Shown in pieces: positions 1 through 25,149 of a stretch of 64,000 bases of DNA (position 1 is its first letter; every line of letters begins with the position of its first letter). The stretch covers positions 28,379,485 through 28,443,484 of the forward strand of contig OZ038433.1 of NCBI GenBank assembly GCA_964036275.1, in the 5' to 3' direction. A program made the position numbers and the translations under genes. The DNA is from Litoditis marina (lineage: Eukaryota; Nematoda; Chromadorea; Rhabditida; Rhabditidae). Under the pieces are notes generated by a model. That model saw nothing but the letters and a program-made list of their open reading frames with translations. It searched no databases and was not told where the DNA came from.

Positions 1-4
1 TTAA

Positions 5-325
5 ATCAAACCCAAGTTTTCTCTACCACTTTTCAGTGGCGGTCAATATTACAGCGAATTCTCAAATTTACCTAGGGTTGTTCCCCCGAAATCCCCCTCA
101 AACCTCAAACTAGAAGAACTGAGGAACTTCCGAGGCCAAGAACCAATTCACGGTTTCTGCCCACCAGTTATAGCTTTGACTATAGCTCTCCATCCTTATC
201 TAAGGGAATCGTACGGTAGCAAATACCGCACGGTTATCATTGCTGATAATGGTTTTACAACACCACCGAAACCCTTCCTAGACGACAACCATCTGGTTGT
301 AAATCCCCGCTGGCAATATCAGTAA
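5..325 (+). CDS. C-terminal part of an unknown protein upstream of gag
   Basis: An open frame follows the stop codon at 2-4 and runs for 106 codons to TAA (323-325), backed by a TAG directly after it. The composition looks like protein: Pro-rich at first (VVPPKSP), then an ordered stretch with HGFCPP, YLRESYG and RTVIIADNG, ending in NPRWQYQ. It contains no Met near its start, so the beginning (or an upstream exon) must lie left of the window or be joined by splicing. I recognise no family. It sits 0.9 kb before gag, and no copy of the 3' LTR (14275-14635) separates the two, so it probably belongs to the same giant element as an extra 5' gene. It could instead be a flanking gene or a chance open frame. 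Confidence 0.4.
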   Translation: MKPKFSLPLFSGGQYYSEFSNLPRVVPPKSPSNLKLEELRNFRGQEPIHGFCPPVIALTIALHPYLRESYGSKYRTVIIADNGFTTPPKPFLDDNHLVVNPRWQYQ

Positions 326-1225
326 TAGACCCCACCCATCTAAAATTCAATTATCATTACTGAGTGTCATAAGGAAAGGTGACCAACCTACTACTTTCTT
401 CTCGTTTCTTGTTCAATCCACTTTGATAATTTTCCCTCAGCAACTAGTAACGACTTCGGACTGTTTAAAACACCATAAGTGTTTCCCCTGAAAAAATAGT
501 ACTTTCAAATAGTCCCTTTCTTCATCGCGTTAACATACCTAACAACCAGTGTTATCCCATTCTATTTTACTCTCATACATTACACAGTCCCCGTAAATAT
601 GCGAATATACTTCTTTTCTTTTAGGACAACTCTTTGTCCCCAAGCTTGCCAGCATCCAGTGTCCGACAAGGACCAAAGGTAAGACATGCGAAAAACTCGG
701 TCGAACCACCATGTTTTCCCCTTGACACTTTCCATACCTAACGTTTAACAATAGTTTTTTAGCTTCCAGCCCTCAGAGCCAACCCGTCGCCTCGCGCCAC
801 GGAAGAGACCACACAAGGACCACACTAACCGGTAACAACATCCACTCTTTAACTAGAGAAACTTAAATGTTGAAAAACAAATGTATATAGCGTACCTTTT
901 GCTCAACTTTCCTTCCCACGATACACATCCTTTCACCCGAAAAGATTATTCTTCACTTGAAAGAATCAGTCACCATTCAACGAAAGAGAACCTGAAAAAA
1001 AAACTCACAGGTTATAGCATTCGATTTTTTCAAACAATCTTTTTTTACACAACGGACTATTTCCAGTCCTCCGATTCCCGCCTGCTACCCAGCCGCGGAC
1101 GAAAGAGAAGCCCAGCTTCCAAAAAGGTACGAACGTTTACGTTTATAGTCTTTCTACACCCCATTCTTTTTTTTTTCTCTTTCCGAACTTTTTCTCTCTC
1201 TTACTCTCAACACGGTGGATATCAC
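326..1225 (+). other. Leader upstream of gag with candidate splice donors
   Basis: This stretch is pyrimidine-rich and has no convincing gene. The gag frame is open from 881, but that segment (residues 1-115 of the longer reading) is dominated by Phe/Ser/Lys runs and hydrophobic patches, which is more like leader than Gag. Two good 5' splice donors are visible: AAAG/GTAAGA with GT at 679-680, and AAAAAG/GTACGA with GT at 1127-1128. These are candidate leader donors for spliced mRNAs of the downstream accessory ORFs, whose ATGs directly follow acceptors. A weak acceptor (TTTTCCCTCAG) lies near 440. No primer-binding site or LTR was recognised. Confidence 0.4.
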
Positions 1226-4144
1226 ATGGTAGAAACCCGGAGACAAAAGAGAGAACGAGAAAACCCAGACATCGAATCAACTTCGGTATCTAGCTCCAAT
1301 ACTCAACGAGTATCTAGAACTAAGGACACACAGCCAACCAAAAGACCAGCAAAAACATCTGAAAACAAAGTAACTCCAGTAGTATCATCTGATACAACCC
1401 CTGCTACCAGCTGGTCTTTAGTGCTCAACATTCCGTCCACACCTCAAAGTTCAGAGAACCTTTCCACACCTCAAAACCAAACTAACTCTCAATCGAATAG
1501 CGAAACAAGAGGTAACACGAACTGGGGATTCGAATCTGATTTTTACACACCAAACACTGGTTTAGAGGTAGAGTCACCCCCTCGTGACGAGTCAAGTTTT
1601 GATCAAACTCTAGAGCAGTCTCTACTTACGATCGCAAATACTACTCGTCTGGCACATCACACCGCCACACCTCTCACGAGACTCTCTCAACCTAGACTAA
1701 ACTCGTCCGCGAGCCAAATCACAGCCAAAACAGTACCCACACTAACAGTTCCTAAGTCAGCTGGTTCTAAACCACTTTACCAACCTCTTACAAACACTAC
1801 CCCTAGATCTTTTACCCACCAAGCAAAAGTTTGGGCATCCAATTTCAAGTTTTACTCTTTTCCCTCTCCCAACCTTTTTACCAGAACAACAAGTTCTAGT
1901 AACCTCCCACAAAGAGGAAATAGACGGTCAAATAGTACGCTACCCAGCCCTGTGAACCCACCCTCCCCAATTGTAACACTTCCTGCCACACCTATAACGA
2001 CTATGTCAACAGGAACGGGTTCTACAAACCCACAAGCGCCCCCTCCACCACCCCATGTCGCCCCAGCGCCTATTGCCGCCAATGCTCCGCTCACCCCGCA
2101 GCAAATGGCACAGCAACTCCAGGCACTGCAGCAACAGTTTCAAAACCTGCAACCTCAACTACCCAATGTTCAGCAACCCCGGCAAAATATTTCCCCTATT
2201 CAAATAGCAAAGATCCTTGAGAATAGAATAAGCAAATTTAGCGGTGATGGAGAGGAGATTTTTGCCACTTGGCTGGAAAAATTCGTGGACGTACTAGAAA
2301 CGTTTGGGATTCCTACAGACAATGCCAAAATTCTCCTTCCCTTATACCTAATTGATGGGGCACGCGTCCATTACGATGCGATTCAGAATCGCCAAAACCT
2401 GACGTGGGCAGAGATCACAACTGAACTATGTAGAAAACTGAAAAACAACTTTCGCATAGAAAATGCCCGAGAGGAACTCTTTGACCTTTGCCAAGGGGCT
2501 GACACAGTCGGTCAATTTGCAAAGAAAATCAAAGAGAAGTGTCTAGTAGCTTATCAAGGTAGAGACCCTGCTGAAATAAGCAACAACCAAATAGTACACT
2601 TCCTCCGCGGACTAAGACCCGACATCCGAAGAACTCTTCGCAGATTAGATACTAACCCAACCACCTTTGAGGAGGCTATTCAAAAAGCTGAAAAGGAGGC
2701 ACGTATCTTAACTCAAGAGCAATTTGAACGTTTAGAACGTGATGAAAAAATCAACTCGATAGCTATCGAATCTAAACTCGAAAAGCTCGAACAAGAAATT
2801 CGAAACCAAATTAAGAGTTCTCGGAATCAAAAAAATAACAAACCTGACCAACCTCCTAATACAGGGAAAAATGACCATCAAAACCAAACTTTCTGGAATG
2901 GAAACCGTCCAAACTTCAATAAGCGAGATAACAACTTTCGATCTAACCAAAGGTCATTTGATGACCGACCCCCAAGGCAAAATAATGGTTACAACTCCAA
3001 TTATCGGGGTAACCAACCAAACGATAGAGGTAACCACCAATCGCAATCTCGCCCTCAAAACTGGGGAAATAGATCCTCGAATCAGTGGTCACCTCGAAAT
3101 GAGAACGGTTATTCGAATTATTATTCCAATCAGAACTCGAATAATTATTCCAACCGAAATTCGAATAATTACTCCAACCAAAATTGGAACAACTCTTCCA
3201 ACCAAAATTCGAATAACTACTCTAACAATGGGAACAACCACCCAGGGAACAGGAACCCACAATCCTATTCTAACCAAGGACAACGGTCCAATTCCCAAAA
3301 CGATCAAACTTACATCCGATCTTTTCCCGTACGAGGTAACTCACTCTCATACCCTCAAATGTATCTCTGCATAGCGCTTCTAGTTTTATGTGGTTTTACA
3401 TCCGCAACCAACCATGGACTCACGGAATTCCAGATTTGCGGTTTCCATCAAAACGGTGTTCTTTACCGTCCTCCAAAAATGATAACGTCCCCTATCCATC
3501 TTAATGATCATACCCTTCTCACTCCCCTCAAAGCGATAATGTATACTGAAAACAGTAATGGATTTGAAATTAGAGCCACGAGATGTTTTATGACACCAAT
3601 TTTGATCAAAATCAATGTTTCCTTCCTTCGGTTTGGAGTAACGACTGAAGTAACATACCAAACGACAAGAGCGATCTCTCGTGAGGAATGTATTCAAGCC
3701 CGAAACTCAGGAACAATCGACGGAAAACTTTTGAAAACAGTAGCTTCTGGCATAAAACAAACCGAATTCGATATACCTACTACCGGTGAATTACCCTGGT
3801 TCGGAGAACAAACTCTAATCAGGAAAATTTATACCACAGAGGATAGTATTCTCACATCTTTAGATGGAATTCACATCTCCTCACCACTAGGAGACACTAG
3901 CGCATGCAAATTAACGGATGACTCTTGCAAAAGAGAAACTTACACCATTGTTTGGGACAAAATTATCGTACAACCCTGGTGCAAATTCAAGAAACTAGCA
4001 GAATATGATGCCCTGGTTACACCGACTCACATAGCTGTACCAGACACAGCTAGTATCTTTGAATTTGAATCCGATTACGAACATACGAACCAAGTGACTC
4101 AATTCTGTGAAATGCCAAATAGCTATCTGACTAAAGAGAACTGA
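1226..4144 (+). CDS. gag: Gag polyprotein of a Ty3/gypsy-like element, fused in frame to the N-terminal half of an Env-like glycoprotein
   Basis: I chose ATG 1226 because the protein there begins with a basic Gag-like segment (MVETRRQKRERE); the frame itself is open from 881. The N-terminal 320 residues are low-complexity Ser/Thr/Pro with a PPPPP run and a QQLQALQQQ stretch. Residues about 325-495 form a retrotransposon-Gag capsid domain (FATWLEKF, LPLYLIDGA, FLRGLRPDIRR). A basic, Asn/Gln/Tyr-rich region with many YSNQN-like repeats follows (about 545-700). No CCHC zinc knuckle is present. At residue 712 (nt 3359) a signal-peptide-like run starts (MYLCIALLVLCGFTSA), followed by about 245 residues of Cys-containing ectodomain. 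Translation ends at TGA 4142-4144, and the glycoprotein appears to continue in another frame in the next ORF. The capsid assignment is firm; the signal peptide is strong; the function of the ectodomain is inferred. Confidence 0.85.
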   Translation: MVETRRQKRERENPDIESTSVSSSNTQRVSRTKDTQPTKRPAKTSENKVTPVVSSDTTPATSWSLVLNIPSTPQSSENLSTPQNQTNSQSNSETRGNTNWGFESDFYTPNTGLEVESPPRDESSFDQTLEQSLLTIANTTRLAHHTATPLTRLSQPRLNSSASQITAKTVPTLTVPKSAGSKPLYQPLTNTTPRSFTHQAKVWASNFKFYSFPSPNLFTRTTSSSNLPQRGNRRSNSTLPSPVNPPSPIVTLPATPITTMSTGTGSTNPQAPPPPPHVAPAPIAANAPLTPQQMAQQLQALQQQFQNLQPQLPNVQQPRQNISPIQIAKILENRISKFSGDGEEIFATWLEKFVDVLETFGIPTDNAKILLPLYLIDGARVHYDAIQNRQNLTWAEITTELCRKLKNNFRIENAREELFDLCQGADTVGQFAKKIKEKCLVAYQGRDPAEISNNQIVHFLRGLRPDIRRTLRRLDTNPTTFEEAIQKAEKEARILTQEQFERLERDEKINSIAIESKLEKLEQEIRNQIKSSRNQKNNKPDQPPNTGKNDHQNQTFWNGNRPNFNKRDNNFRSNQRSFDDRPPRQNNGYNSNYRGNQPNDRGNHQSQSRPQNWGNRSSNQWSPRNENGYSNYYSNQNSNNYSNRNSNNYSNQNWNNSSNQNSNNYSNNGNNHPGNRNPQSYSNQGQRSNSQNDQTYIRSFPVRGNSLSYPQMYLCIALLVLCGFTSATNHGLTEFQICGFHQNGVLYRPPKMITSPIHLNDHTLLTPLKAIMYTENSNGFEIRATRCFMTPILIKINVSFLRFGVTTEVTYQTTRAISREECIQARNSGTIDGKLLKTVASGIKQTEFDIPTTGELPWFGEQTLIRKIYTTEDSILTSLDGIHISSPLGDTSACKLTDDSCKRETYTIVWDKIIVQPWCKFKKLAEYDALVTPTHIAVPDTASIFEFESDYEHTNQVTQFCEMPNSYLTKEN

Positions 4145-5760
4145 AACACGACGAATTCCTAGTTGATCACATTCTATCTAATTCAGCTAGGAAATATAAA
4201 AGGGACACGTTCTCAGTACAAGATTCAAATGGTCGCACATCACACTACCACCAAATTCCAATTATTACCACACCCTTGGTCATGCGAATGTTCACTACAC
4301 CATCACAACAACCACCTCGATTCACAACGAGGCCGATCAGTGACCACAGAATACTTAGGGAAATCCATCATTGGAACGTAACTAATAGGTTGTTAAGTAG
4401 TATGAACCACATATACGGAAATAATAACGAACAAATAATGGTCCTCAGAGCCATTCGCTATGCAGAGTATTGTACCTTACAACGTCGCCAATTCGATCAG
4501 ACAACACGAATTCGACCTCTGTCCTATAGCGAACAGTTCTTAGAACAAACCATTAGTTCTCCGACCGTGACAGATAAATTTGATAATTATCTCGACCGAG
4601 AATTCGGGTCAGCCAAGAGTAATTACCGAAACATCCACTCAAATAGTACTGGACCATATTTCAATGTGCCCCTACGAAATTACCACCCTGTAAGTGAACA
4701 GGAATATGTTAGACCAACCTCACCAGTACTGAATTCCAGGTCTCCCACCGGACCATCCCGATCCCGAACCATTCCAATCCCGAACAAACGAACAACCACC
4801 GACCGAACGAGTGAGTCTAGAATTCAACCAATAGTTTCAAACTTAACATTAGTAAAGAAAAATGTTCAACTAGCTGTGAATGATGCGCAAACTGGCATGG
4901 TAAACCAGAAGGAACAGGTACACACCAGCACCTCCTTCACTGCACAGCACGTTAGTAACACGGTTCAAATTTTCAACGAGATTAGCATGAAATACTGGTT
5001 GAAATGGACCACAGCCACCTCACTCCTAACTATTAATCCAACTATAGGTGCACGTTTCATATTTCAACGTGAAGATCTCATAGCTAAGTTTGCTGGTGAA
5101 GCACTACTGATATCTGACTGCACACCAGCAAACCCAACGGATTTTAATTGGAACCAACGCATTAACGATACTTGCTATGAGTTCATCCCAGTAACTGTTG
5201 ACAATACCACATGGTTTTGGAAACCGGGCACCCATGATCTTTTTGAGTCATCACCTAAATTACCATGCAATCAATGGGTTCCCCCAGTTTACACCGAAAA
5301 CCTCAAGTGGAGGACAATTTTGGGAGAAGTTGAAATTCACACCATACCTTTTCAACAACCGACAAAACGGAAACGTACAACCTCCGTAGCTACATCCCCA
5401 TTACTATACAAGCAGTTAGATGAATCACTGAACATCAATCTTTTCAAAAGATTATTCAGAGAATCAAGAAAACTATGGAACGACACAAAATGGTCGGATT
5501 TTTCGGATACACTTAGGAATAATACAGTCATCAATACTGTGGAAGAACTGTACGACACTACTTCCACGAAAATAAGTGACAGCATTACATCGATTTCTAA
5601 CTCGATACAAACCTACACGTATGCCATCATCCTAGTTCCCATCACATTCATAGTTCTTTTAGTCACTGCATATTGCGCCATCCGTTACATAATTATTCGG
5701 AAAACGACTAACTTTGTCTCAAAACGAACAATTGACCAATTAGACGGCTTAATAGATAGA
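3359..5760 (+). other. Env-like glycoprotein region placed between Gag and protease
   Basis: This region spans the junction of the two large ORFs. It opens with a signal-peptide-like segment at 3359 and carries scattered Cys in both halves. Two multibasic, furin-type motifs are present: RKYKR at 4189-4203 and KRKR at 5365-5376. Several N-glycosylation sequons occur, and a strongly hydrophobic anchor lies at about 5614-5700 (AIILVPITFIVLLVTAY), followed by a basic stop-transfer (RYIIIRK). That is the layout of a class I style, type I membrane glycoprotein. I do not recognise the family: the Cys-dense pattern of phlebovirus-type Gc, known from nematode BEL/Pao elements, is not apparent. Because the reading frame changes at about 4140, the full product needs a frameshift, splicing or another recoding event. 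The same membrane protein would be fused to protease-RT at its cytoplasmic side. Confidence 0.65.
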
Positions 5761-8700
5761 GCTACCCATCTACCACCATTACAAAATTTACGAGATCGTT
5801 TCGCTCAAGTGAATAATGTAACCACGGAAGCCCATGAACTAGATGAAATTCACATTCAGCCTACACGTATCGCACCTAGCTGCCCCCCAATTGAAAGAGA
5901 ACGCTATTTTATCCCGAAGATTTATGCCGTGATCTGTAATGTTGAAGGGAAAAGCAGCGCACTACCCTACATAGAAGCGAAACTGAATGGTACACGACAT
6001 AACTGTTTGTTGGATTCAGGAGCATCAGTATCCTACCTTGGGATCTCTACTTTGAAATCTTTGAATCTACCATCCTTGAACGACACTACCCCACGCACTG
6101 CTCGCACTGCAAATGGTTCAACTTTCCAGTTTCTAGCTAGTGCAGATATCCAAATTTCAATTGGTAGCCAGACCTTTTTACACACGTTCCAAATTTCCCC
6201 AGATGATTCATATCCAGCACCTGTACTATTAGGAGCAGATTTCATCCGAACTATGAACAAGGCAGGTCACAGGGTCTCACTTGATTTAGTTGACAACAAC
6301 GTTGAAATAGGAAATGTTAGAACACCTTTAATTCAAGTTAACAACGTAATCGAACCCAGTGCACATGGAACAAATCCACTTTCAGTACATTTGCTTGACA
6401 CCATCAAAATGGAAAAACAAACTGAGAACATCGTTCCAGTTCAAATTAGGAATAGGAACCTACGTGTAAACACAGAATTCCTCCTCGAGGATAATCATCG
6501 CGTAGACGAACAGATGTACCTCGTAGGACGCACGCTGGTCCATCCAGACTCATTGGGATTCTGCAACGTTATAATTACTAATCCTTCGAATAGTATCATC
6601 ACACTCTATCGAGATTCTAACATAGCGAACGCATTTCCTATTCCTACCAACGTGAACGATTTCGAACACCAAATTTCATATATCGATAACGCGAACATCT
6701 ATGTTCCACCAGAGGCTCACTGGGAAAACAACCTACCATCTTTCCCTCACCCCGAACCAAATAACTACGACATCGCAACCGAAGTCGATCTGTCCACATC
6801 TAATTTAACTAGACAGGAAAAAAATCAACTTGTTGACATAATTAGAGCGCATCAGAACGCCTTTGTAGGACCCGACGGACGTTTGGGCCATTACAACGGA
6901 CCCATTAGACACAGAATTGACCTACAACCAGATGCAAAAATACCCGCGGCAAAAATGTACCGTGTGCCTTTAGAAAAACGCGTTGAAATTGCTAAACAAA
7001 TTGACCAGATGCTGAAAGACGACATAATTTGTCCATCTGACTCTCCTTTCAGTGCACCAATAGTGCTAGTAAAGAAAGCAGATAAAACATCTTATCGTTT
7101 CACCATCGATTTTAGAGCTTTGAATGCGATCACGAAAAAATCCCAGTCAATTTTACCTAACATTCATGACATTGTCGACTTATGCGCTAACCAAGCCTTT
7201 TACACCACAATGGATTTTCAATCCGGCTTTCATCAGATACCAGTAGAAGAATCACACTGCGAACGAACAGCTTTCGCCGCCAGTTTTCTTGGAAATTTCC
7301 AATATAAGATGATGCCTCAAGGCCTAGCCCAAAGTCCAATGACATTTCAAAAAATCATGAACAAACTAGCAAAATCAATGCAAGCCAGAGTTTTCATCTA
7401 CGTAGACGACCTTATCATTACCTCCGAGACTGCCTCAGAACACCTCAAGGATATTGATCACGTTTTGAACCACATTGAAAACATAGGCATGAAACTCAAA
7501 GCGTCAAAATGCAAATTTGCTCAAACTGAAGTAAAATTTTTGGGGTTTATTTTATGTAGTGACGGAATCCGACCAAACCCGGAGAAAACGAAAGCTATCG
7601 CAAAATATCCAACACCTAAGAATATTACAGATATAAGAGCTTTCCTAGGAGTCACCTCATTTTTTCGCCGATTCGTACCACATTACGCTCAAATAGCAGC
7701 ACCTTTGATTGAACTCACTAAAAAAGACGTCCCATTTCTTTGGAGCGAAACTTGTGAAAATTCTTTGAAAGTTTTAAAAACTGCATTGACATCTGCACCC
7801 ATCCTTGTAGCGCCAAAACTTGGAAAACCGTTTGTGATTGAGACCGATGCATCCGCACTCGGAGTAGCAGGTGTTTTGAAACAAGGTGAACCTAACGATC
7901 TACGTGTCATAGCATACGCAAGCAGAACGTTGAATAAACACGAAGCACGCTACCCAGCTATTGAACTAGAGGCCTTAGGAATCGTTTTTGCAGTTAAAAA
8001 GTTCAAACCATATATTGATGGAGCAAAATGCACAATAATAACCGATCACTCACCTTTAAAATCACTTCTATTCCGTAAAGATCTCAGCAGTCGCTTGGCA
8101 CGCTACCAAATAACACTCCAGGAATTTGATATTGACATAATCTATCGTCCTGGAAAACAAAATCAGTTATGCGACGCCTTAAGCAGACATCTTCCCGAAA
8201 ATATCGAAACCATCGCCGCCATTCAGTCCGATCCTATCCTACCAATCAAAATATCACAAGCTGATATAAGGATCGAACAGAATAGCTGCTCATGGATTCA
8301 AGATATTAAGGAAAAGATAGCGAAATCTGATCGTACAGATGAACACACTCAACGTTACATAGTTATTGATGACATTTTATATCATCTGCCCGAAAGGAGA
8401 GACAAACCTCCCCAAATCGTATTACCAGAGACCTCTCAATTGAAGTTTGACATAATTCGTAACATGCATGAGTCAAATTTTGGGACCGCTCACTTAGGCA
8501 TCCAAAAGACGAAATCGGTCGTTACGAACCTTGCAATTTGGCGAAATATGATCGATGATGTAAAAATCGTCATTGCGAACTGCGCATCATGTCAAAGAAT
8601 TAAAGATCCTAACGCATATAGGAATTCAGCTCCTATGCAAAATTTTGAGGTCCCCCTTTCACCTTTCCAACGAGTTCATGCAGATTTTGTCGGTCCTTTA

Positions 8701-9495
8701 AAATTAACAACAAAAGGAAATCAATACATTTTTGTCATTGTAGACGCTTTCACAAAATTCGCAATTGCTGAACCACTAGCAGACCAACGTGCCATTACTA
8801 CCATCCAAACTATGGTTGATCGAGTAATATCACGTTTCGGCACCCCCGAAATTTTTATCACCGATCAGGGTAGCAATTTCACTAGCAAGTACTTCAAACA
8901 ATCGATGACTCTCATGAACATCAAACACGTCACGAGTGTGGCTTACCACCACCAAACGAATGGACTGGTGGAAAGATTCAATCGAACGCTAGAAGAATTA
9001 ATCGCTAATGACATTGATAAGGGTAGAGATGATTGGGATGAGAACATCCAACTCCTAGTACATGCTTACAACTCTTCGGAGAACGCTACAACTAAAATGA
9101 GCCCATTTTACTTGATGCATGGACGTGTTCCCCACTCACCCTTTGTTTCCGCATTGAACCACCCACAGATCCAATTTCGAGATCAAACGGATTATGTAGA
9201 GTATCTGAAAATGAATTTACAGCATGCATGGGAATACAATAAATTTACCATCACACAAGCACAGAAACAGCACAAAAAGCACTACGACACCAGGAACCGC
9301 ACTCAATTCACCCAATTCACAGTTGGAGAGAAAGTAGTCACACGGTTGAATAGAAGAACAAAAATCAACCCTATTTACGGTAAACCAGGTGTTATCGTCG
9401 TACTAGATTATCCGAATTTGACCATCGAAGATGAGAACGGCCATTTTAAGACATTTCATGCCAACCAGATCAAGAAGTTCCAAGAACTTCACTAA
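4135..9495 (+). CDS. pol: Env-like C-terminal half plus Pol (protease, reverse transcriptase, RNase H, integrase)
   Basis: The frame is open from 4135, overlapping the Gag stop by about 10 nt; the first ATG (4276) lies inside the glycoprotein part, so entry is probably by recoding or splicing. The order is: glycoprotein remainder and membrane anchor (to about 5700), short linker, aspartic protease with DSGA at 6013-6024, RT with YVDD at 7399-7410, RNase H (ETDAS near 7840, TDHSPL near 8040), and integrase. The integrase shows an HHCC zinc domain at about 8463-8600 and the D,D(35)E triad at codons 8683, 8863 and 8971. A GPY/F-like tail ends the protein. The order RT-RNaseH-integrase is that of Ty3/gypsy (Metaviridae). 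All catalytic motifs are intact and there is no internal stop over 5.3 kb, which suggests recent activity. The unusual part is the membrane glycoprotein fused upstream of protease. Confidence 0.9.
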   Translation, partial: RELKHDEFLVDHILSNSARKYKRDTFSVQDSNGRTSHYHQIPIITTPLVMRMFTTPSQQPPRFTTRPISDHRILREIHHWNVTNRLLSSMNHIYGNNNEQIMVLRAIRYAEYCTLQRRQFDQTTRIRPLSYSEQFLEQTISSPTVTDKFDNYLDREFGSAKSNYRNIHSNSTGPYFNVPLRNYHPVSEQEYVRPTSPVLNSRSPTGPSRSRTIPIPNKRTTTDRTSESRIQPIVSNLTLVKKNVQLAVNDAQTGMVNQKEQVHTSTSFTAQHVSNTVQIFNEISMKYWLKWTTATSLLTINPTIGARFIFQREDLIAKFAGEALLISDCTPANPTDFNWNQRINDTCYEFIPVTVDNTTWFWKPGTHDLFESSPKLPCNQWVPPVYTENLKWRTILGEVEIHTIPFQQPTKRKRTTSVATSPLLYKQLDESLNINLFKRLFRESRKLWNDTKWSDFSDTLRNNTVINTVEELYDTTSTKISDSITSISNSIQTYTYAIILVPITFIVLLVTAYCAIRYIIIRKTTNFVSKRTIDQLDGLIDRATHLPPLQNLRDRFAQVNNVTTEAHELDEIHIQPTRIAPSCPPIERERYFIPKIYAVICNVEGKSSALPYIEAKLNGTRHNCLLDSGASVSYLGISTLKSLNLPSLNDTTPRTARTANGSTFQFLASADIQISIGSQTFLHTFQISPDDSYPAPVLLGADFIRTMNKAGHRVSLDLVDNNVEIGNVRTPLIQVNNVIEPSAHGTNPLSVHLLDTIKMEKQTENIVPVQIRNRNLRVNTEFLLEDNHRVDEQMYLVGRTLVHPDSLGFCNVIITNPSNSIITLYRDSNIANAFPIPTNVNDFEHQISYIDNANIYVPPEAHWENNLPSFPHPEPNNYDIATEVDLSTSNLTRQEKNQLVDIIRAHQNAFVGPDGRLGHYNGPIRHRIDLQPDAKIPAAKMYRVPLEKRVEIAKQIDQMLKDDIICPSDSPFSAPIVLVKKADKTSYRFTIDFRALNAITKKSQSILPNIHDIVDLCANQAFYTTMDFQSGFHQIPVEESHCERTAFAASFLGNFQYKMMPQGLAQSPMTFQKIMNKLAKSMQARVFIYVDDLIITSETASEHLKDIDHVLNHIENIGMKLKASKCKFAQTEVKFLGFILCSDGIRPNPEKTKAIAKYPTPKNITDIRAFLGVTSFFRRFVPHYAQIAAPLIELTKKDVPFLWSETCENSLKVLKTALTSAPILVAPKLGKPFVIETDASALGVAGVLKQGEPNDLRVIAYASRTLNKHEARYPAIELEALGIVFAVKKFKPYIDGAKCTIITDHSPLKSLLFRKDLSSRLARYQITLQEFDIDIIYRPGKQNQLCDALSRHLPENIETIAAIQSDPILPIKISQADIRIEQNSCSWIQDIKEKIAKSDRTDEHTQRYIVIDDILYHLPERRDKPPQIVLPETSQLKFDIIRNMHESNFGTAHLGIQKTKSVVTNLAIWRNMIDDVKIVIANCASCQRIKDPNAYRNSAPMQNFEVPLSPFQRVHADFVGPLKLTTKGNQYIFVIVDAFTKFAIAEPLADQRAITTIQTMVDRVISRFGTPEIFITDQGSNFTSKYFKQSMTLMNIKHVTSVAYHHQTNGLVERFNRTLEELIANDIDKGRDDWDENIQLLVHAYNSSENATTKMSPFYLMHGRVPHSPFVSALNHPQIQFRDQTDYVEYLKMNLQHAWEYNKFTITQAQKQHKKHYDTRNRTQFTQFTVGEKVVTRLNRRTKINPIYGKPGVIVVLDYPNLTIEDENGHFKTFHANQIKKFQELH

Positions 9496-9584
9496 TCTTT
9501 GACATGGGTCACATCTCTCGCGTAGTTAATTAGTGTTACTAGTATAAAAAAAATTGTTTATAATGAATCTCTCATCTTACGAAA

Positions 9585-9607
9585 TGGAAAAAATAAATAC
9601 CTAATAA
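9585..9607 (+). terminator. Polyadenylation signals after pol
   Basis: AATAAA at about 9592 and a second overlapping TAATAAAT follow the pol stop by about 100 nt. They could end a gag-pol mRNA before the accessory genes, although a genomic RNA must read through to the 3' LTR. Confidence 0.3.
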
Positions 9608-9697
9608 ATTAGAATACAACCAAAACCCCCCAACAAAGTAGCTTTAACAATGTGCTTGTATCGTTTGCTTATCCCATGCTTAATGCTTATAACCCCG

Positions 9698-9713
9698 CTT
9701 TCCTTCCTTCAGA
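9698..9713 (+). promoter_or_regulatory. 3' splice acceptor directly before accessory ORF A
   Basis: A pyrimidine tract TTTCCTTCCTTCAG ends at 9712, and the ATG follows after one A. This matches the nematode acceptor consensus and decides the ATG at 9714. It could serve cis-splicing from the 5' leader or SL trans-splicing. Confidence 0.6.
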
Positions 9714-10355
9714 ATGGACAGCCAGACACAACGAGCCAATTATTACTGGCAAGAACTGACCACCATCGACGAGGCTACTCGAAATCCATATACAAGTCAA
9801 CCAACCCTGGGAAAAGCCTATGCTACCCTCGAAGGCGTGACCCGGCACACCACCCTTCGCAGCATCTCAATTGAGATGAAACCTAATGATTGTGTAACGA
9901 TGTCGGTCATCTTCCACGACGGCATCCAATTGGTTATGCCAATAGGCTCAAAACACGCATATTATAAAGACGGAGCCGGAAATATATCCTGCTCCGTCTC
10001 AAAAACCACACAGGTCTCTCCATACGAGAGTGGATCGGTATTCGACCGCTTTGAGCTGCACCCAACCTTACACCAGGTGCAGCTCACAGCAGGGAAAATA
10101 CTGATCCACTGTCCTAAGGAAGAATGCGAGCTTCCTGCAACTCTTCTACAGTTCTTACTGAACATAAGAGGAGTGCAGGAAGTTCAAATCTACGGTCAGA
10201 AACCCAACCAGGGTGGCCGCTTTGAGCGCCTCGCAGAGAAGTGCGGATGCAGGTGTACTTTCCACCCTTACAAGGAGGCAGAGTACACCTGCAGTCGCAT
10301 CGACCTAAGCGACGCTCACAAGCGACCATTCCTGCACCACAAATACCACATGTAA
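9714..10355 (+). CDS. Accessory ORF A, paralogue of ORF B at 13444
   Basis: A 213-residue protein starting one base after a strong splice acceptor. I recognise no known family. Residues 50-162 align almost without gaps to ORF B of the same element: shared positions include the N-D pair, TxSxxF..G (62-70), P..S.H.Y (76-83), PY..G, FEL.P.L (113-119), P..L..FL (141-148) and a final G. The C-terminal part is different and Cys-rich (KCGCRC and a later Cys). No signal peptide or membrane segment is seen, so it is probably cytosolic or nuclear. It lies 218 nt after pol, and an AATAAA at about 10514 may end its mRNA. By analogy with retroviral accessory genes it may regulate expression or oppose a host defence, but nothing in the sequence proves a role. 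Confidence 0.75.
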   Translation: MDSQTQRANYYWQELTTIDEATRNPYTSQPTLGKAYATLEGVTRHTTLRSISIEMKPNDCVTMSVIFHDGIQLVMPIGSKHAYYKDGAGNISCSVSKTTQVSPYESGSVFDRFELHPTLHQVQLTAGKILIHCPKEECELPATLLQFLLNIRGVQEVQIYGQKPNQGGRFERLAEKCGCRCTFHPYKEAEYTCSRIDLSDAHKRPFLHHKYHM

Positions 10356-11048
10356 ATATTGTTCATATTATACCTTTGTTACATATTCCACCCATGCTCA
10401 CTGTACATACCAATGTCTATACAATTTGTTTTACTTGTCAACTACCTCCTGTCATCATGTCAATATAAAATATTCCCTGGCTATCAACCAGATCCGTATA
10501 GCACTAATTTAAAAATAAAAGGGATAACATGTTTTATATACACGGAGGTAAACACAGTAATACAGAAATTGAGACCATGGGAAAACGGGACACATCGGAA
10601 AAATGGAATATATATGAGTACCGGTTGAAAAAACAAAACAAAAGAACGTGTTGGGAAAAAGAGTTAACCAACAACATTCCACTCGTAAGATTTTGATTAA
10701 ATATCGTGAGACCGGGAAAATAACCATAACACTCTAGAACAAAACAACTGTTGCCAGATAACACTGAGATCAAAACAACACGATTTTGGATATAAGACCA
10801 TGGAGAAAACAAGGGAGAACAACTGAACAACTCGCCAACAACACGGAAACGAATCAACAAAAATCCGTACTACCACAGATGTCTAGTTTAGTTTTATAAA
10901 CTCCCTCTAAATCAATCTCCATAAAACCACGAGAAACGGTTGCCAAATTTGGAGAGAATTAAAAAAAAAGGCTAGACATTTGAACAGTCGAATAATCTCA
11001 CAACAAGAAACAACGAGATATAGTTTGATACTTAATCTGTATCACGAG
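10356..11048 (+). other. Non-coding stretch between ORF A and the antisense gene
   Basis: A/T-rich sequence with AATAAA at about 10514 on the plus strand. The short open frames here are biased and lack splice or domain support. It would contain the 3' UTRs of ORF A (plus) and of the antisense EGF gene (minus). Confidence 0.4.
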
Positions 11049-12305: not shown

Positions 12306-13226
12306 ATGGAAGAATTGAACTGGGAATTCGAAGACCTGTTGCACACCTCGGACAGTGAAGTTCGCAAAGAGGAAGGGATTGAACTACTGAGTGATTCAGA
12401 AGCTTCCGGACCTCCGCCTTCTTCAGGAAAAATCGAAAAAACGATTAAAAAATCGAAAAAATCTGCGAAGAAAATTAAGACTATTCAAGACAAGGTGAAA
12501 TCCTCTTTGAAATCTAGGATAACCTTTGTGAATACCCCTGAACTTGTCACGTCTGAACCAATTGCACCACCAGTAGAAACAGTCAACAACCCGGTCAAAA
12601 TTGTCCCTATTGCTGCACGTCAACCTGTCATCATACCCGGGAGTGTGAAATCGTTTAATCGATCTTTCAACAAACACTCGTCCCCACTCACCGTTAACCT
12701 GCCAAAACAACCTGTTCAACAACCTAACAACTCCCACCATTCCAAACAAACCCCACGCAGTTACACACGCATCTTCACACGTAAAACTCCCTACCATACC
12801 TCTCACCGCCCAAATGCACCCCGCCATTATAAAGCAAACTTTTATAACACAAATTCCACTTCACACATCCCACCACTTTTAAGCATGACCCATTCTCGCC
12901 CAATTTCTTACTTTCACAACCCCACAAAACCTTTCTTCCCACCTCCTCAACCTACCCCACCATCATTCTCACAATTTCCGACACAAACCAACCCGGTTGG
13001 TCGACCATCTTTGACCTGCCTCTTGTGTCAGGGCAATCATCACACGAACATTTGTCATATTCAAATGCCATACGGAGAACGCATGCGTCTCCTAGTCGGC
13101 TTGAAAGGACTATGTGTTGCATGTCTGGAACTAAACATTCCCAACCACCGTTGCACCGTACCAACACAATGCATGTACTGCAGCGCTATCAACCATGCCA
13201 CTGCACTTTGTCCCCTCAAAATGTGA
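12306..13226 (+). CDS. Separate zinc-knuckle (nucleocapsid-like) protein
   Basis: A 306-residue protein. The first 45 residues are acidic, with SDSE motifs and an IELLSDSE segment that resembles a SUMO-interacting motif. A Lys-rich, NLS-like patch follows at about 42-70 (IKKSKKSAKKIK). Residues 80-230 are Pro/Ser/Thr/His/Asn-rich and probably disordered. The C-terminus carries three Cys/His modules: a variant CLLC..HH..C, a CVAC...H.C module, and a canonical CX2CX4HX4C (CMYC...H....C), joined by an RMRLL..LKGLC segment. The whole array resembles the C-terminal zinc region of BEL/Pao-type Gag proteins. The element's own Gag has no zinc knuckle, so this protein may supply RNA binding or packaging in trans; that is inference. 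The ATG directly follows a splice acceptor. Confidence 0.8.
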   Translation: MEELNWEFEDLLHTSDSEVRKEEGIELLSDSEASGPPPSSGKIEKTIKKSKKSAKKIKTIQDKVKSSLKSRITFVNTPELVTSEPIAPPVETVNNPVKIVPIAARQPVIIPGSVKSFNRSFNKHSSPLTVNLPKQPVQQPNNSHHSKQTPRSYTRIFTRKTPYHTSHRPNAPRHYKANFYNTNSTSHIPPLLSMTHSRPISYFHNPTKPFFPPPQPTPPSFSQFPTQTNPVGRPSLTCLLCQGNHHTNICHIQMPYGERMRLLVGLKGLCVACLELNIPNHRCTVPTQCMYCSAINHATALCPLKM

Positions 13227-13443: not shown

Positions 13444-14106
13444 ATGACCTTCCATGAAATCCCGGAGTACAACGATCCTTTCAACATCATTCGAGAAATG
13501 GTAGTACTGTTGCGTCAGCGAAACCGCACCATAACAATCGAACTGGTCTACCAGGAAATCGAGAAGTTGATCCCACAACACAAGATCGAAGAGATAACAG
13601 TGAAATTCATTGAGAACGATATCATCACTTTCTCCTTCTTGTTCGAAAATGGTCCAAATGTCATTATTCCTCTGGCCTCTCCACATTTGTATTCGAGTTA
13701 TGGAGTGCCAGAAATCCTTCGGGGAAAAAATGTACATCGTCACATCACGATTCCATACAACAAAGGTGGCTTTGGAGATTTCTTCGAGTTATCTCCTATG
13801 CTAAAAAGACTCAGCTTCGCCACTGAAGTTCTACGTGTGTTCTCGAATAGTACATTTACTCGCATACCAAATGACTTAGTTCGATTTTTGAACTTCAACA
13901 TAAGTGCAAAAATCACCTACGTCTCAGGGTTCAGTCAACACAATGGACTGAATCTGTTGTTCGGAAACAAGTTACATCAAGGACTAGTCTCTTACAAACC
14001 ACTACCATCACCAGGAGACTATTTCATTGACTCACTTGATTTCGGAAAATGGTTTGCGAGACCCAATGTACCTTATTGTCAAACCATCTCCCCTCACATC
14101 AAGTAA
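13444..14106 (+). CDS. Accessory ORF B, paralogue of ORF A
   Basis: A 220-residue protein, the last gene before the 3' LTR. From residue 50 to 162 it aligns with ORF A with a single one-residue shift. Shared features include IxIxxxxND, ITxSxxFxxG (61-70), P..SPH.Y (76-83), IPY..G, FFEL.P.L (113-120), IP..L..FL (141-149) and a G at 162. The C-terminal third differs from ORF A: it lacks the Cys cluster and ends in PYCQTISPHIK. No membrane segment or known motif is visible. An AATAAA (about 14176) and the polypurine tract follow within 170 nt. Duplication and divergence of accessory genes suggest selection for different roles. Function unknown. Confidence 0.75.
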   Translation: MTFHEIPEYNDPFNIIREMVVLLRQRNRTITIELVYQEIEKLIPQHKIEEITVKFIENDIITFSFLFENGPNVIIPLASPHLYSSYGVPEILRGKNVHRHITIPYNKGGFGDFFELSPMLKRLSFATEVLRVFSNSTFTRIPNDLVRFLNFNISAKITYVSGFSQHNGLNLLFGNKLHQGLVSYKPLPSPGDYFIDSLDFGKWFARPNVPYCQTISPHIK

Positions 14107-14635: not shown

Positions 14636-17600
14636 TTTCGGGCCATCGGAACTTATATTGAAAGATCTTGAGTCCAAAAGGCTCAAGGTTAACATGGGCC
14701 AGGTCTCGATGAAACCTGACAAGTCTGAAACATTGGCTTGTAAAGACTCCAATCTGTATCCAAAACAGAGGAGCCAGACTACCAGTCTGCCAGCCAACGT
14801 GAACAAGGATAAGAGCTCAAGGGAAAATTTTCCTACACTGATCAATAGTGTAAAAAACGAGCCACCTTGTCTGCTGGATCTTGAGATAAACGGTAAATCC
14901 GTGCCCTGCGAGCTAGATACAGGCGCATCAATCTCAATAATTGACTATGACGTATGGGTCGGAATTGGCAAACCAACCCTATTGCCAGTGAAAACACAGG
15001 CAATGGCTTATAATAAAAGTCCTATCCGCTTCGCCGGAATGTCAAAAGTCAAAGTCAAATTCAACGGAAACCAAGCCATCATACCTATTCATGTTCTAGA
15101 AGGACAGAATAGTGGTTATCCGTTGTGTGGACGTGACATGATACGTTCACTAGGCATCGATTGTGGTTCACACTACCGCACGGTGTTCGAGGTCAAGACG
15201 CTAGATCGTCAGACACTCAAATCCGAGCTAACCGAGATGTTAGAGCAGAACAAGGCACTATTCAACCCAGAACTGGGAAAGTGTACTACGGTCCAGGCAC
15301 ACCTCAAATTCAAAGAGGATACGCCAACCCCGAAATTTTTTCGGGCAAGACCGATTCCGTTCGCTCTCAGACCGAAGGTTATTGAAAAGCTCGATGAAAT
15401 GGTACGAAACGGTACCTTGGTCAGAGTAGAACACTCTGACTGGGCAACACCTCTCGTGGTTGTGCCTAAACCCGGAGGCAAAATAAGGGTATGCGGTGAC
15501 TACAAAGTAACAGTCAACCAGCAATTGGATATCAACCAATACCCGTTGCCCATTCCAGACGATCTGTTCCATATGCTAAATGGAGGGACAAAGTTCTCTA
15601 AGATGGATCTGTCTGATGCATACATGCAAGTGGAACTAGACCAAGAGTCTAGAAAATACACCACTATCAATACGTTGAAAGGCATGTTCGAGTATACACG
15701 AGTCCCATTTGGTGTAGCCTCTGCCCCAGCCATATTCCAACGCATAATGGAAACAACGCTGGCAGGTATAGAAGGTGTTCTCGTATACCTAGACGACATC
15801 ACGGTCACCGCGCCGGATGATCGCACGCATCTCGATCGACTCAGACGAGTGCTAGACCGCCTTAATAAGGCAGGTTTTCGACTAAAACGTGAAAAATGTG
15901 AATTCCTAACAGAAAAAATGGATTTTCTGGGACACGTTGTCGATGCCAATGGCATAAGACCCTCGCAAGAGAAGCTGAAAGGCATGGTCAATATGTCAGA
16001 ACCGAAAAACCTCAAGGAAATCGAATCCTTTTTGGGGATGGTTCAATATTATGGCAAATTCATCCCGAATCTATCTACCTTGGCAGCCCCGATGAATGGT
16101 TTGCGTAAAAAAGGAGTAGTATTCAAATGGGAGAAGGAACAGCAAACTGCGTTCCATGCTATCAAGAAAAGGTTGATGGAAACCGATATCTTGACGCATT
16201 ATGACCCCCAAACTCCAGTCGTATTGGCCACTGATGCCTCCGATTATGGATTGGGAGCAGTCATTTATCACAAATACGCCGATGGCAAAGAAAAAGTCAT
16301 CGCCTATGCCTCACGTTCACTCACAAAAGAGGAACGAAACTATGCTCAAATTGAGAAAGAGGCATTAGGCATTGTATATGGCGTTGAGAAATTCAATCAA
16401 TTTCTCTATGGAAGGAAATTTACCCTCCTGACCGATCATCAACCATTGGTGAAAATATTCGGTCCCAAGCATGAACTACCAATCATTGCTGCGAAGAGAT
16501 TGCATCGCTGGGCACTGAGGTTAATGGTGTATTCTTTCGAAATCGAATATAGAAACACCCACGAGTTCGGAAATGCAGATGGGTTATCCAGACTGCCCGA
16601 CCCTCGAGAATTACCCAGTGCAGAAGCCATCGTACGAGAAGTACAGATGATAGATATGCAAGATGAATATCTCGAAAAACTTCCTATGTCTGAAAAAGAC
16701 ATTTCAGAAGCAACTCAAAAGGACACTTTGTTGCAAGTGGTGAAACAGTACATTATAAATGGCTGGCCACCAAAGGTCCGAAATGAGGCTCTGAAGGCAT
16801 TCACTGGCAAGAAAGAGGAACTGAGCATTCATAAAGGGTGCATCCTCTGGGGTACACGCGTAGTAATACCGACCCAATACAAGAAGAAAATTCTTGAAAT
16901 GTTGCACAGTAGCCACTATGGGAAGAGCAGAATGATATCTTTAGCCCGAATGAAGGTTTGGTATCCCGGAATTGATAGCGACATCACCAAATTGGTGGCA
17001 GCGTGTGACACATGCGCAATTTTCGCTAGGGATCCAGTAAAAACAAAACTGCATCCATGGGAAGAGCCGGCAAAGCCCTGGCAACGACTCCACATGGACT
17101 TCTGCCAGACAGAAGATGGCAGTATGTGGTTAGTTGTGGTCGAAGCAAAGTCAAAATGGCCGACAGTGGTAAAAATGAGAACCACAACAACTGAAAAAAC
17201 CACCGCAGTACTCAAGCAACTGTTCTCATTACATGGATTGCCCGAACAAATAGTATCGGATAATGGACCTCAATTTGCGTCCAGAGAATTCGAAGAATTC
17301 TTCCAGTTGCGAAATATTGAGTTAACACTCACTCCGCCCTATCACCCTAATTCAAATGGGGAAGCGGAAAGACTGGTTCAAACATTCAAGAAGGGACTGT
17401 ATAAAGGTATCAGATCAGGCAAAAGCACTGACGAAGCCGTAACAGACCTCTTGTTTCAATATAGAGTGACACCCCATCCTGCAACAGGCAAATCGCCAGC
17501 AGGGATATTAATGGGCAGACAACTCAGAACCGCCTTTGACTTCATAAAAACCGACAAAAAAGTCGTTCCTGATAATCAATACAGAGAAAATATGAAGAAA

Positions 17601-18629
17601 CATTACAAAGGTAAGGCAGTAAAGACTTTCAAACCAGGCCAAGAAGTCTACCTACGCAATTATAATGCAAAAGGAGACAAATGGCTACCTGGGATTGTCA
17701 CGGAAATTTCCGGCGCTAATACGTACATAGTACACTATGGCACCGGTCATAGAAAAGCGCATGCTGACCAACTGAGAAAGAAAGTCACTTTCTGGGAAGA
17801 TTTGGACACTACCGTTCTTGTACAAATGCCTACTCAGAATAAGGGTAATGGTCAGAAACGTACACCAAAGACGAAGGTCCCTCGAGCAATTCCGAATGCA
17901 CCGAGAAAATCTAACCGGATGAGGAAACCAGTAGATAGGTATCAAGCAGCCAACATGGTGCAAACCTACCACCACAACCCCACCGTTAATAGCATTTCCA
18001 TGAAAATGAAAACCGTGGATGTGGAAATCGCACGCCGTAAACAGGCAACCAACGACGTAAACAAACCTGTTGAACCGTTGAAGAACTCAAAATCACGTGA
18101 AATGCAGCGTGAAAAGTGCAATTTGAGGAATGAAAACCAGGGGAGGGAATATCCGACCCGGAGAAGGTTTCATTCCAGTAGAAGGTTTCACAAGTACACA
18201 CAGATTGGACACCTGATCCATATTCAACGAAGATGTAGAGTAGCATTGAACTTCGCTCACACGATTGAGGGGAGATGTAGATCTAACTCGAACTTCACAA
18301 AAGATCGTATGCAGAGAGGTACACCTAGCAATGTGAACTCCACTTCCTCAAACAAAGACAGGGAGTGGAGACGTAACACTAGGGAGAACTCTGCCAACCC
18401 GTTCTCGGGTCTGATCAACAATTTTGGTCATCGCCGCGCCAGAGATCCTAGTAGTATTGATGAGTCATCAATAGGGGAGGTGTTATGGCACAGACCGCTT
18501 TCATTCCGAGAACGACTAGAAAGGAGAGAACAAGAAGAAGAAGCGAGTCAAGCCATCCTGACAAGAAGAACAAAGAGTGCAGTCTACGCTTCTGGAAGAC
18601 GCTTCACGCTGTCTGGGAAATGGGTATAA
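14636..18629 (+). pseudogene. pol: Second Ty3/gypsy element: 5'-interrupted Pol (protease to integrase)
   Basis: The frame is open from 14634, exactly at the first element's LTR edge, to a stop at 18627-18629 inside its own 3' LTR. Its first ATG is 14694 and no Gag precedes it, so the N-terminal part was cut off, probably by insertion of the first element. Domains: aspartic protease (DTGA at 14916-14927), RT (YLDD at 15786-15797), RNase H (TDASDYGLG near 16230; LLTDHQPL near 16430), integrase zinc domain (HSSHYG...CDTC, about 16905-17020) and catalytic core (D near 17097, D 17259, E 17367, spacing 35). The tail holds RKSNRMRKPVDRY, typical of C. elegans K02A2.6-like gypsy elements. The enzyme part is intact and diverged from the first element's Pol, so the two are different families. 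Confidence 0.85.
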
Positions 18630-24580: not shown

Positions 24581-24720
24581 TTTTTGTTTTTGTTCGATTA
24601 ACCTTTTTATGTAGTCAGGATCTCTACGGATTAACACAATTGTTTTTCCAATATATTTTGATCTATTCAAACCACCAAAAGGCGGAACAACAGCTCACTG
24701 CGCACACTCCGCACATCTAG

Positions 24721-25149
24721 AAGTGATTGTCAAAGCAGCTAAATGCAATGTTTCCAAGGCGATAACATGACTCATTTTCAACCGATTGGTCCAAGATTTT
24801 AGATTTACCCATAACTCTGCTGTTTCTAACTATATTCCAAATTTCAGACGAATCGGTTAAATTCGTCGGTTTTGCGGCCGCCGCGCCACGCCGCGCCGCG
24901 CCGCCGTCGGAAGACATTTTTGCGAGACGATATTCAGCATAACTGTAGATCACTGGTCGCACATTAAATATCAAATAGCTCAATGATAAAGCCTTTCCTC
25001 CTCTATCTCTTTCCATCAAAATCTCAAAAATCCGTTCAGGAGTTTTTGAGAAAATGGCATAAAACCACTTTTGAAAGTCCGCAATGTTGTGATCAAAAAC
25101 TAATCTGCGCAGCGCTTCGCGCTGCGCGCGATTATCAGGAAACAATTAC
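24721..25149. repeat. About 430-bp repeat in a receptor intron, copy 1
   Basis: It is almost identical (a handful of differences) to 26833-27262. It starts GAAGTGATTGTCAAAGCAGC, has a GC-rich core (GCGGCCGCCGCGCC) and ends in a near-palindrome CGCAGCGCTTCGCGCTGCG just before the 5' splice site of the receptor exon. A minus-strand frame of 142 codons runs through it but begins with TTG and reads through the palindrome, so I do not treat it as a gene. Confidence 0.7.

What the first reader, a model, noticed from the sequence alone, without database searches (positions are those of the whole stretch)
1226..9495. Ty3/gypsy-class element with Env-like glycoprotein between Gag and Pol
Seen: the capsid domain, an internal signal peptide (3359), multibasic cleavage motifs, a membrane anchor (about 5614-5700) and then protease-RT-RNaseH-integrase, with all Pol catalytic motifs intact. 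Established: in retroviruses and env-bearing gypsy and BEL/Pao elements, env lies after pol and is made from a spliced RNA. An Env-like module upstream of protease would be a different genome organisation. The family of the glycoprotein is not recognisable to me.
Basis: partly seen in the sequence, partly recalled or inferred. Interest (0 to 1): 0.9.

Follow-up and report, generated by a model that had tools for sequence, protein, structure and literature searches.

The report
Envelope gene between Gag and Pol
This retrovirus-like element of a nematode lineage carries a glycoprotein related to herpesvirus fusion proteins in the middle of its genome, between the capsid and the enzyme genes instead of at the end, and it is likely made as part of one long polyprotein that would thread through the membrane.

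Summary
The window holds a Ty3/gypsy-type element ordered Gag, signal peptide, Env, membrane anchor, protease, RT, RNase H, integrase. The Env piece hits Pfam Monjiviricetes_fusion (E 5e-13). A profile of nine related Env cores, the window's included, finds solved herpesvirus glycoprotein B structures and nothing else below E 0.4 (54 of 58 hits), so it is a class III fusogen by sequence. The arrangement is not a local insertion: 28 of 120 listed relatives carry the module, and all 15 that also have Gag show Gag-Env-Pol. The carriers fall in one 35-row RT clade (100/100); its 27 named database members are all nematodes. Correction: this copy changes frame inside Env, at 4135-4144; otherwise the Gag and Pol frames are open. 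gB-like Env in LTR elements is known (Tas; annelid Dingle, downstream of integrase). The middle position I did not find in print, but the key paper (Chary and Hayashi 2025) was not held. One Gag-bearing relative, P0093, lacks Env together with protease and most of RT. No RNA or protein data; no LTR pair found.

The parts
1226..3340 (+). Gag: capsid domain PF03732 at 2339-2620; no CCHC knuckle; N/S/Q/R-rich C-terminal tail
   Evidence: PF03732 E 3.7e-06; family Gag profile E 2.1e-57; no CCHC
3359..3406 (+). predicted internal signal peptide at the start of Env
   Evidence: a hydrophobic segment at the same place in 15 of 15 relatives
3368..4141 (+). Env N-terminal part, in the Gag frame
   Evidence: family Env profile positions 7-255, E 2.2e-51
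4135..4144 (+). overlap of the two reading frames: frame change inside Env in this copy
   Evidence: relatives carry this part of the module within one protein
4189..4203 (+). basic site RKYKR at the family's furin-type site
   Evidence: last R in 13 of 13 relatives; R-X-[KR]-R at the aligned site in 9 of 13
4165..5727 (+). Env C-terminal part, in the Pol frame; PF24664 Monjiviricetes_fusion match at 5011-5328
   Evidence: profile positions 271-751, E 1.2e-77; PF24664 E 5.3e-13, 48.3 bits against a cut-off of 27
5623..5697 (+). predicted membrane anchor
   Evidence: a hydrophobic anchor near the end of the module in 15 of 15 relatives
5971..6249 (+). aspartyl protease, active site LLDSGAS at 6007
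   Evidence: PF13975 E 7.3e-12
7201..7554 (+). reverse transcriptase, C-terminal part of the PF00078 match (the query piece began at 7201); YVDD at 7399
   Evidence: E 8.7e-28
7822..8127 (+). RNase H domain
   Evidence: PF17917 E 1.2e-33
8434..8949 (+). integrase: H2C2 zinc domain (8434-8607) and core (8659-8949)
   Evidence: PF17921 E 1.8e-11; PF00665 E 6e-17
678..679 (+). candidate leader splice donor (AG|GTAAGA)
   Evidence: joint best donor match (7 of 8) in 1-10800; consensus match only
9712..9713 (+). candidate splice acceptor 1 base before the ATG of the downstream ORF
   Evidence: CCTTCAG, 5 of 7; consensus match only
9714..10355 (+). downstream ORF X (213 aa), in the usual env slot but with no Pfam hit
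   Evidence: related to ORF 13444-14106 (E 3e-13)

Best explanation
This is a Ty3/gypsy-type element of a nematode clade that encodes a gB-related glycoprotein, with a predicted signal peptide and membrane anchor, between Gag and protease, and it is likely translated with them as one Gag-Env-Pol polyprotein that would cross the membrane twice. Shown: the order, its conservation in relatives, the shared RT clade, the profile match to gB, and the two flanking hydrophobic segments. Inferred: unspliced RNA is translated; Gag is made in the cytosol; the internal signal then sends the Env part into the ER; signal peptidase and furin cut it; the anchor stops transfer, so protease, RT and integrase end up in the cytosol; and the element's protease separates Gag and Pol from Env. 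Two crossings leave both Gag and Pol on the cytosolic side, a logic like that of the flavivirus polyprotein (recalled). Env would then act as a class III fusogen on particles, giving cell-to-cell or between-host spread. The usual env slot after pol holds another ORF behind a splice-acceptor-like site, possibly an RNA-export factor as in Cer1 (inferred from position, not from similarity). The copy in this window changes frame inside Env and so would not make the whole polyprotein by plain translation.
For: Family: PF24664 on the window piece and on 9 of 9 Env cores, with PF00606 gB on 8 of 9. The nine-row profile hits 54 distinct PDB gB sequences at E 5e-10 to 4e-4, next hit 0.43. Order: 15 of 15 relatives with Gag and Env hits read Gag, Env, RT. 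Twelve of the 15 had supplied the Gag profile from the stretch before Env; with profiles built from three members each, 11 of 12 and 12 of 12 held-out members have Gag before Env. Of 20 Env-bearing proteins scanned with Pfam, 19 show PF24664 at E <= 0.01, each before protease; P0006 shows none. P0021 is 2534 aa on a 9889-base contig. One module: window pieces searched apart match profile positions 7-255 and 271-751. Topology: signal and anchor in 15 of 15. Cleavage: conserved R in 13 of 13. Co-inheritance: all 29 Env rows lie in one 35-row RT clade; Env-RT r = 0.85, Env-Gag r = 0.93. Against a spliced Env RNA starting at M3359: no acceptor-like site of 5 of 7 or better in 2672-3358.
Against: No RNA or protein data were available. 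Many relatives are database gene models whose introns may have been removed. P0093 (C. japonica, 1276 aa) has a clade-like Gag and no Env; it also lacks protease and most of RT, so it reads as a cut-down copy or gene model, and its RT was too short for the tree. PF24664 scores are below Pfam's cut-off in 8 of 20 Env-bearing proteins scanned and absent in one. A strong donor-like site at 3335 lies 23 bases before the Env start, so splicing at the Gag/Env border is possible. The acceptor before ORF X also scores only 5 of 7, so the splice-site argument is weak. AlphaFold2 on the two window pieces, without an alignment, gave pLDDT 34 and 38 and shows nothing about the fold. Direct searches with the window's Env found no relative. 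Two family cysteines are serine in this copy, and its frame is broken.
Confidence: 0.7

Rival explanations
1. The gene order is the same, but Env and Gag-Pol are made from differently spliced RNAs: Env sits in a retained intron-like segment that is spliced out to make Gag-Pol, or is reached by splicing from the leader.
For: The two best donor matches in 1-10800 are in the leader (678) and 23 bases before the Env start (3335). An acceptor-like ATTCAG ends at 5859, after the anchor. Cer1 makes its CERV protein from a spliced RNA (PMC10309623, passages read).
Against: Joining 3335 to 5860 is out of frame for Gag-Pol in this copy (worked out by hand from the coordinates). No acceptor of 5 of 7 or better lies in the 687 bases before the Env start. 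Open frames run across Gag-Env and Env-Pol, and P0021 spans all three on one contig.
Confidence: 0.2
2. A foreign glycoprotein gene was inserted into this one copy, or the assembly is chimeric.
For: The frame changes inside Env in this copy.
Against: The same module lies at the same place in 15 of 15 relatives that have Gag and Env, and it co-diverges with Gag and RT.
Confidence: 0.02
3. The region is an extended Gag or linker with a membrane-binding stretch, not a viral glycoprotein.
For: Single-sequence searches of Pfam with the N-terminal piece and of the PDB with both pieces found nothing significant, and the fold models are poor.
Against: Family profile to gB structures, signal peptide and anchor in 15 of 15, conserved cysteines and furin-type site.
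Confidence: 0.03
4. The frame change is real programmed frameshifting or a small intron rather than damage to this copy, so that Env-Pol is made at a lower level than Gag-EnvN.
For: ORF1 and ORF2 overlap by only ten bases.
Against: I saw no standard slippery heptamer in 4135-4144 (by eye; no scan was run). Relatives carry this part of the module within one protein.
Confidence: 0.08

Closest known systems
Dingle, Ty3/gypsy element of the annelid Dimorphilus (PMC7854359, passages read)
   Same: Ty3/gypsy element with an Env similar to herpesvirus glycoprotein B
   Different: In Dingle the protein lies downstream of integrase, the usual place; here it lies between Gag and protease
Tas of Ascaris (described in PMC9094657, passage read, citing earlier work)
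   Same: Nematode LTR element whose env has weak similarity to herpesvirus gB
   Different: Named among BEL/Pao elements with the envelope-like protein downstream of the polyprotein (PMC7642597, passage); not compared here by sequence
Atlas virus of Ancylostoma ceylanicum (PMC9094657, passages)
   Same: Nematode element with all proteins in one polyprotein (2828 residues), including Env
   Different: Order Gag-Pol-Env, BEL/Pao family, class II phlebovirus-type Env
Anakin, BEL/Pao elements with chuvirus glycoprotein (PMC7642597, passages)
   Same: Glycoprotein of the chuvirus (Monjiviricetes) kind captured by an LTR element
   Different: Mosquito BEL/Pao elements; the RT here groups with the gypsy-type proteins of the search (no BEL reference was in the tree)
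Cer1 of C. elegans (PMC10309623, passages)
   Same: Nematode Ty3/gypsy element, no stop between gag and pol, spliced ORF downstream of pol
   Different: No Env; three CCHC fingers in Gag; the downstream ORF is part of an RNA-export protein
Errantiviruses and envelope-carrying gypsy elements (Chary and Hayashi 2025, not held; cited in PMC13172572, passages, and PMC12859917, passages)
   Same: Env-bearing Ty3/gypsy elements across animals
   Different: Env in the canonical place as I recall it; whether that paper describes Gag-Env-Pol nematode elements could not be checked

Membership tests
Ty3/gypsy (Metaviridae) | Pol order protease-RT-RNase H-integrase | tested here: met
   coordinates; for relatives
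Ty3/gypsy (Metaviridae) | RT groups with Ty3/gypsy RTs | tested here: inconclusive
   groups inside a tree of the search's gypsy-type relatives; no named Ty3, Cer1 or BEL reference RT was in the tree
Ty3/gypsy (Metaviridae) | two long terminal repeats and a tRNA primer site | tested here: inconclusive
   no repeat pair; no exact TGGGGGC (start of the Cer1-type PBS) in 1-1300; other tRNA primer sites were not sought; the window may start inside the element
class III fusion glycoprotein (gB / Monjiviricetes type) | sequence profile match | tested here: met
class III fusion glycoprotein (gB / Monjiviricetes type) | signal peptide, type I anchor, conserved cysteines, cleavage site | tested here: met
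   (family); the window keeps 10 of 12 family cysteines and has KYKR, not R-X-[KR]-R, at the cleavage site. Hydropathy only, no signal-peptide program
class III fusion glycoprotein (gB / Monjiviricetes type) | class III trimer fold | tested here: inconclusive
   pLDDT 34 and 38 without an alignment; no folding jobs left for a family alignment
retrovirus / errantivirus with canonical gag-pol-env | env downstream of pol | tested here: not met
   Env lies between Gag and protease
Cer1 | CCHC fingers in Gag | tested here: not met
   none in the window and in 0 of 15 relatives
Cer1 | CERV homologue downstream of pol | not tested
   ORF X has the same position; no CERV sequence was compared

The most novel reading that the evidence does not exclude
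A whole clade of nematode retroviruses abandoned the gag-pol-env plan: a gB-type fusogen sits between Gag and Pol and is made straight from genomic RNA as a membrane-threading Gag-Env-Pol polyprotein, flavivirus fashion, while the spliced-RNA slot behind pol serves an accessory RNA-handling gene. Capsid, fusogen and polymerase would then be born membrane-linked in equal numbers.
Probability: 0.5. Interest if true: 0.88.

Novelty: new variant of a known kind. Interest (0 to 1): 0.76.

Why it matters
In the retroelements with a captured fusogen that I read about here, it lies behind pol, expressed separately or at the end of a polyprotein. A clade that keeps the fusogen in the middle shows that the gag-pol-env order is not a fixed rule, and it poses testable questions: how an internal signal sequence works in a Gag precursor, how the element balances Gag and Env, and whether nematodes pass such particles between cells or hosts. 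Several members are in Caenorhabditis species that can be kept in the laboratory.

Tried and rejected
Tried without result: homologue searches with the window's Env alone and viral contigs found nothing; relatives came only from a Pol-region search. PDB searches with the single window pieces found nothing; the family profile did. AlphaFold2 without an alignment was uninformative, so no fold search was run. Own-genome copies, LTRs and an empty site could not be examined because the genome search did not complete. NCBIfam gave only chance hits. The first run of the Env profile search printed nothing because of an output pipe; redid it.

Considered and rejected: local insertion or chimeric assembly; plain Gag linker; Env RNA starting at M3359 by ordinary splicing (weakly disfavoured).

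Dropped rows and choices: the RT tree left out 7 of 122 proteins whose RT match was short (P0043, P0044, P0050, P0052, P0060, P0084, P0093). P0093 looks like a clade member and has Gag without Env; it was checked apart. The careful tree used 54 of the 115 rows, with 19 outgroup rows of my choice. Only the best 120 of 2530 hits were listed, from 7974 scored. The Env profile was built from 13 proteins, so 15 of the 28 carriers are held-out hits. The first Gag profile was built from 12 of the 15, which is why repeats the test held out; with one of its two small profiles P0031 does not pass. In one search the anchor of P0024 was sought just after the profile match instead of within its last part.
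Full report
What is in the window. Two long open frames cover the finding. ORF1 (881-4144; Gag M at 1226) holds Gag and the first part of Env. ORF2 (open from 4135 to 9495) holds the rest of Env, a membrane anchor and Pol. The longest frame, 1786 codons, compares with at most 220 in 300 shuffles. Pfam finds the Gag capsid, protease, RT, RNase H, integrase zinc domain and integrase core in order. The Env C-terminal piece matches PF24664 Monjiviricetes_fusion (E 5.3e-13, 48.3 bits, cut-off 27); the N-terminal piece has no significant Pfam hit. The two frames overlap at 4135-4144, inside Env. I treated the two Env parts apart throughout.

Relatives. Searches with Env alone found nothing; that search needs shared exact words. 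A search with the protease-RT region gave 2530 proteins at E <= 1e-10 among 7974 scored, of which the best 120 were listed. I built an Env profile (766 positions) from 13 of them and searched all 120, the window pieces and 200 shuffles. The profile hits 28 of 120 proteins, 15 of them not used to build it, and 0 of 200 shuffles. The window's pieces match positions 7-255 (E 2.2e-51) and 271-751 (E 1.2e-77), so together they cover one continuous module. Fifteen of the 28 also match a Gag profile, and all 15 read Gag, then Env, then RT. Because 12 of these 15 had supplied that Gag profile from the stretch before Env, I repeated the test with two Gag profiles of three members each: 11 of 12 and 12 of 12 held-out members have Gag before Env. 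PF03732, which is independent of my profiles, lies before Env in P0003, P0004, P0005, P0009 and P0014 above its cut-off, and in P0006 and P0010 below it. I scanned 20 Env-bearing proteins with Pfam. PF24664 is above its cut-off in 11, below it (E <= 0.01) in 8 and absent in one (P0006); in the 19 it always lies before protease. Four outgroup proteins with Gag and RT have no Env; three have a CCHC knuckle above cut-off and one (P0085) a weak one.

Clade. An RT-RNase H tree of 115 rows puts all 29 Env rows, the window's included, in one group of 35 (SH-aLRT 100). A careful tree of 54 rows gives the same split 100/100. The six group members without an Env hit are P0015, P0017, P0018, P0023, P0033 and P0034. 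Five are 848-1181 aa long, and the sixth, P0033 (1775 aa), has an RRM domain at 137-195; none has a Gag hit. P0093 (C. japonica, 1276 aa, 64 percent identical over 34 percent of the query) was too short in RT for the tree. It has Gag at 292-479, no Env, no protease hit and only the last part of RT from 575. It is the one Gag-bearing likely member without Env; I read it as a cut-down copy or gene model, because the missing stretch also removes protease and most of RT. Of the 34 database members in the clade, 27 carry an organism name, and all are nematodes, of 14 species. Env distances follow RT distances (r = 0.85) and Env distances follow Gag distances (r = 0.93), each with permutation p = 0.0001 (15 proteins). 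This is what one old acquisition, inherited with the rest of the element, would give. Horizontal spread of whole elements would give it too.

What the protein is. A profile of nine Env cores (eight relatives and the window) was searched against all PDB sequences. It matched 58 distinct sequences at E <= 10. Fifty-four are herpesvirus gB (E 5.4e-10 to 3.9e-4); four of these are listed under the names ORF8, GP110 or BALF4, which I recall as gB of gammaherpesviruses. The best of the other four hits is at 0.43. Each core was also scanned alone: 9 of 9 hit PF24664, 8 of 9 hit PF00606 (gB) and 4 of 9 hit Borna virus G weakly. PF00606 scores of the full proteins stay below Pfam's cut-off, so the gB kinship is distant. 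A signal-like segment at the start and an anchor near the end are present in 15 of 15 full relatives; outside the module, 24 of 22162 19-residue windows are as hydrophobic as the anchor threshold. Twelve cysteine columns are near-invariant, and the window keeps 10. The furin-type position has R in 13 of 13 and R-X-[KR]-R in 9 of 13; the window has KYKR. gB also has its furin site in the middle of the chain (recalled).

How it likely works. With one signal and one anchor, Gag at the front and Pol at the back both end up in the cytosol and Env in the lumen. A Gag-Env-Pol precursor is therefore topologically workable, and the in-frame Gag-Env and Env-Pol junctions are seen directly. Expression by splicing was weighed. 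The leader has a donor-like site at 678, and an acceptor-like site lies one base before the ATG of the downstream ORF X, as in a spliced subgenomic RNA. No acceptor-like site of similar quality lies in the 687 bases before the Env start. A second donor-like site at 3335, just before Env, keeps splicing around Env possible. All splice-site statements rest on consensus matching, and the consensus is recalled.

Compared with what is known. gB-like Env in LTR elements is reported for Tas (PMC9094657, passage) and for the annelid Ty3/gypsy element Dingle, there downstream of integrase (PMC7854359, passages). Chuvirus glycoproteins are reported in mosquito BEL/Pao elements (PMC7642597, passages). 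A polyprotein with Env at its end is reported for Atlas virus (PMC9094657, passages). Cer1 has no Env, and its ORF after pol makes part of an RNA-export protein (PMC10309623, passages and abstract). In the listings of ten literature searches and the passages I opened, I saw no description of an Env between Gag and protease. The library lacks Chary and Hayashi 2025, which surveys Env-carrying gypsy elements in animals and may mention such elements.

Limits. There are no RNA or protein data, no LTRs, no copies from the window's own genome and no usable fold model. The host of the window is not identified; its RT is nearest to Oesophagostomum and Ancylostoma proteins (69 percent identity at best).

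Noticed in passing
window 9714-10355 and 13444-14106: Two ORFs related to each other (24 percent identity over 119 aa, E 3e-13). The first follows pol behind a splice-acceptor-like site; the second stands before another Ty3/gypsy Pol. Neither has a Pfam hit.
   Followed up: partly
window 3104-3223 and Gag tails of relatives: Gag has no CCHC zinc knuckle in the window or in 15 of 15 relatives; instead it ends in a tail rich in N, Q, R or P, in the window with four overlapping 48-base copies at 24-base spacing. An unusual nucleocapsid.
   Followed up: partly
P0030, P0032, P0037, P0033 (Caenorhabditis): Two aspartyl protease stretches between Env and RT, with an integrase-type H2C2 zinc domain before RT, in P0030, P0032 and P0037; P0033 also has two protease stretches and an RRM at 137-195. 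Could be a duplication or gene-model artefacts.
   Followed up: no
window 3488 and 4984: Two family-conserved Env cysteines (13 of 13 and 12 of 13 relatives) are both serine in this copy; they could be partners lost together.
   Followed up: no
P0093 (C. japonica): 1276 aa protein with clade-like Gag joined to the last part of RT, without Env and protease; internal deletion, splicing or gene-model artefact.
   Followed up: partly
window 12306-13226: ORF of 306 aa with several Cys-rich knuckle-like motifs near its end; looks like a Gag remnant of another element (recalled resemblance to BEL/Pao Gag).
   Followed up: no
window 14658-18629: Second Ty3/gypsy Pol ORF (1323 aa), no Env seen in its first 647 residues by Pfam; its RT is distant from the first (29 percent identity).
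   Followed up: partly
window 33484-34500 and 46796-47779, minus strand: Two nearly identical ORFs about 13 kb apart, a likely duplication.
   Followed up: no
window 24720-25019 and 26833-27132: 300-base direct repeat, 99 percent identical, 2113 bases apart.
   Followed up: no
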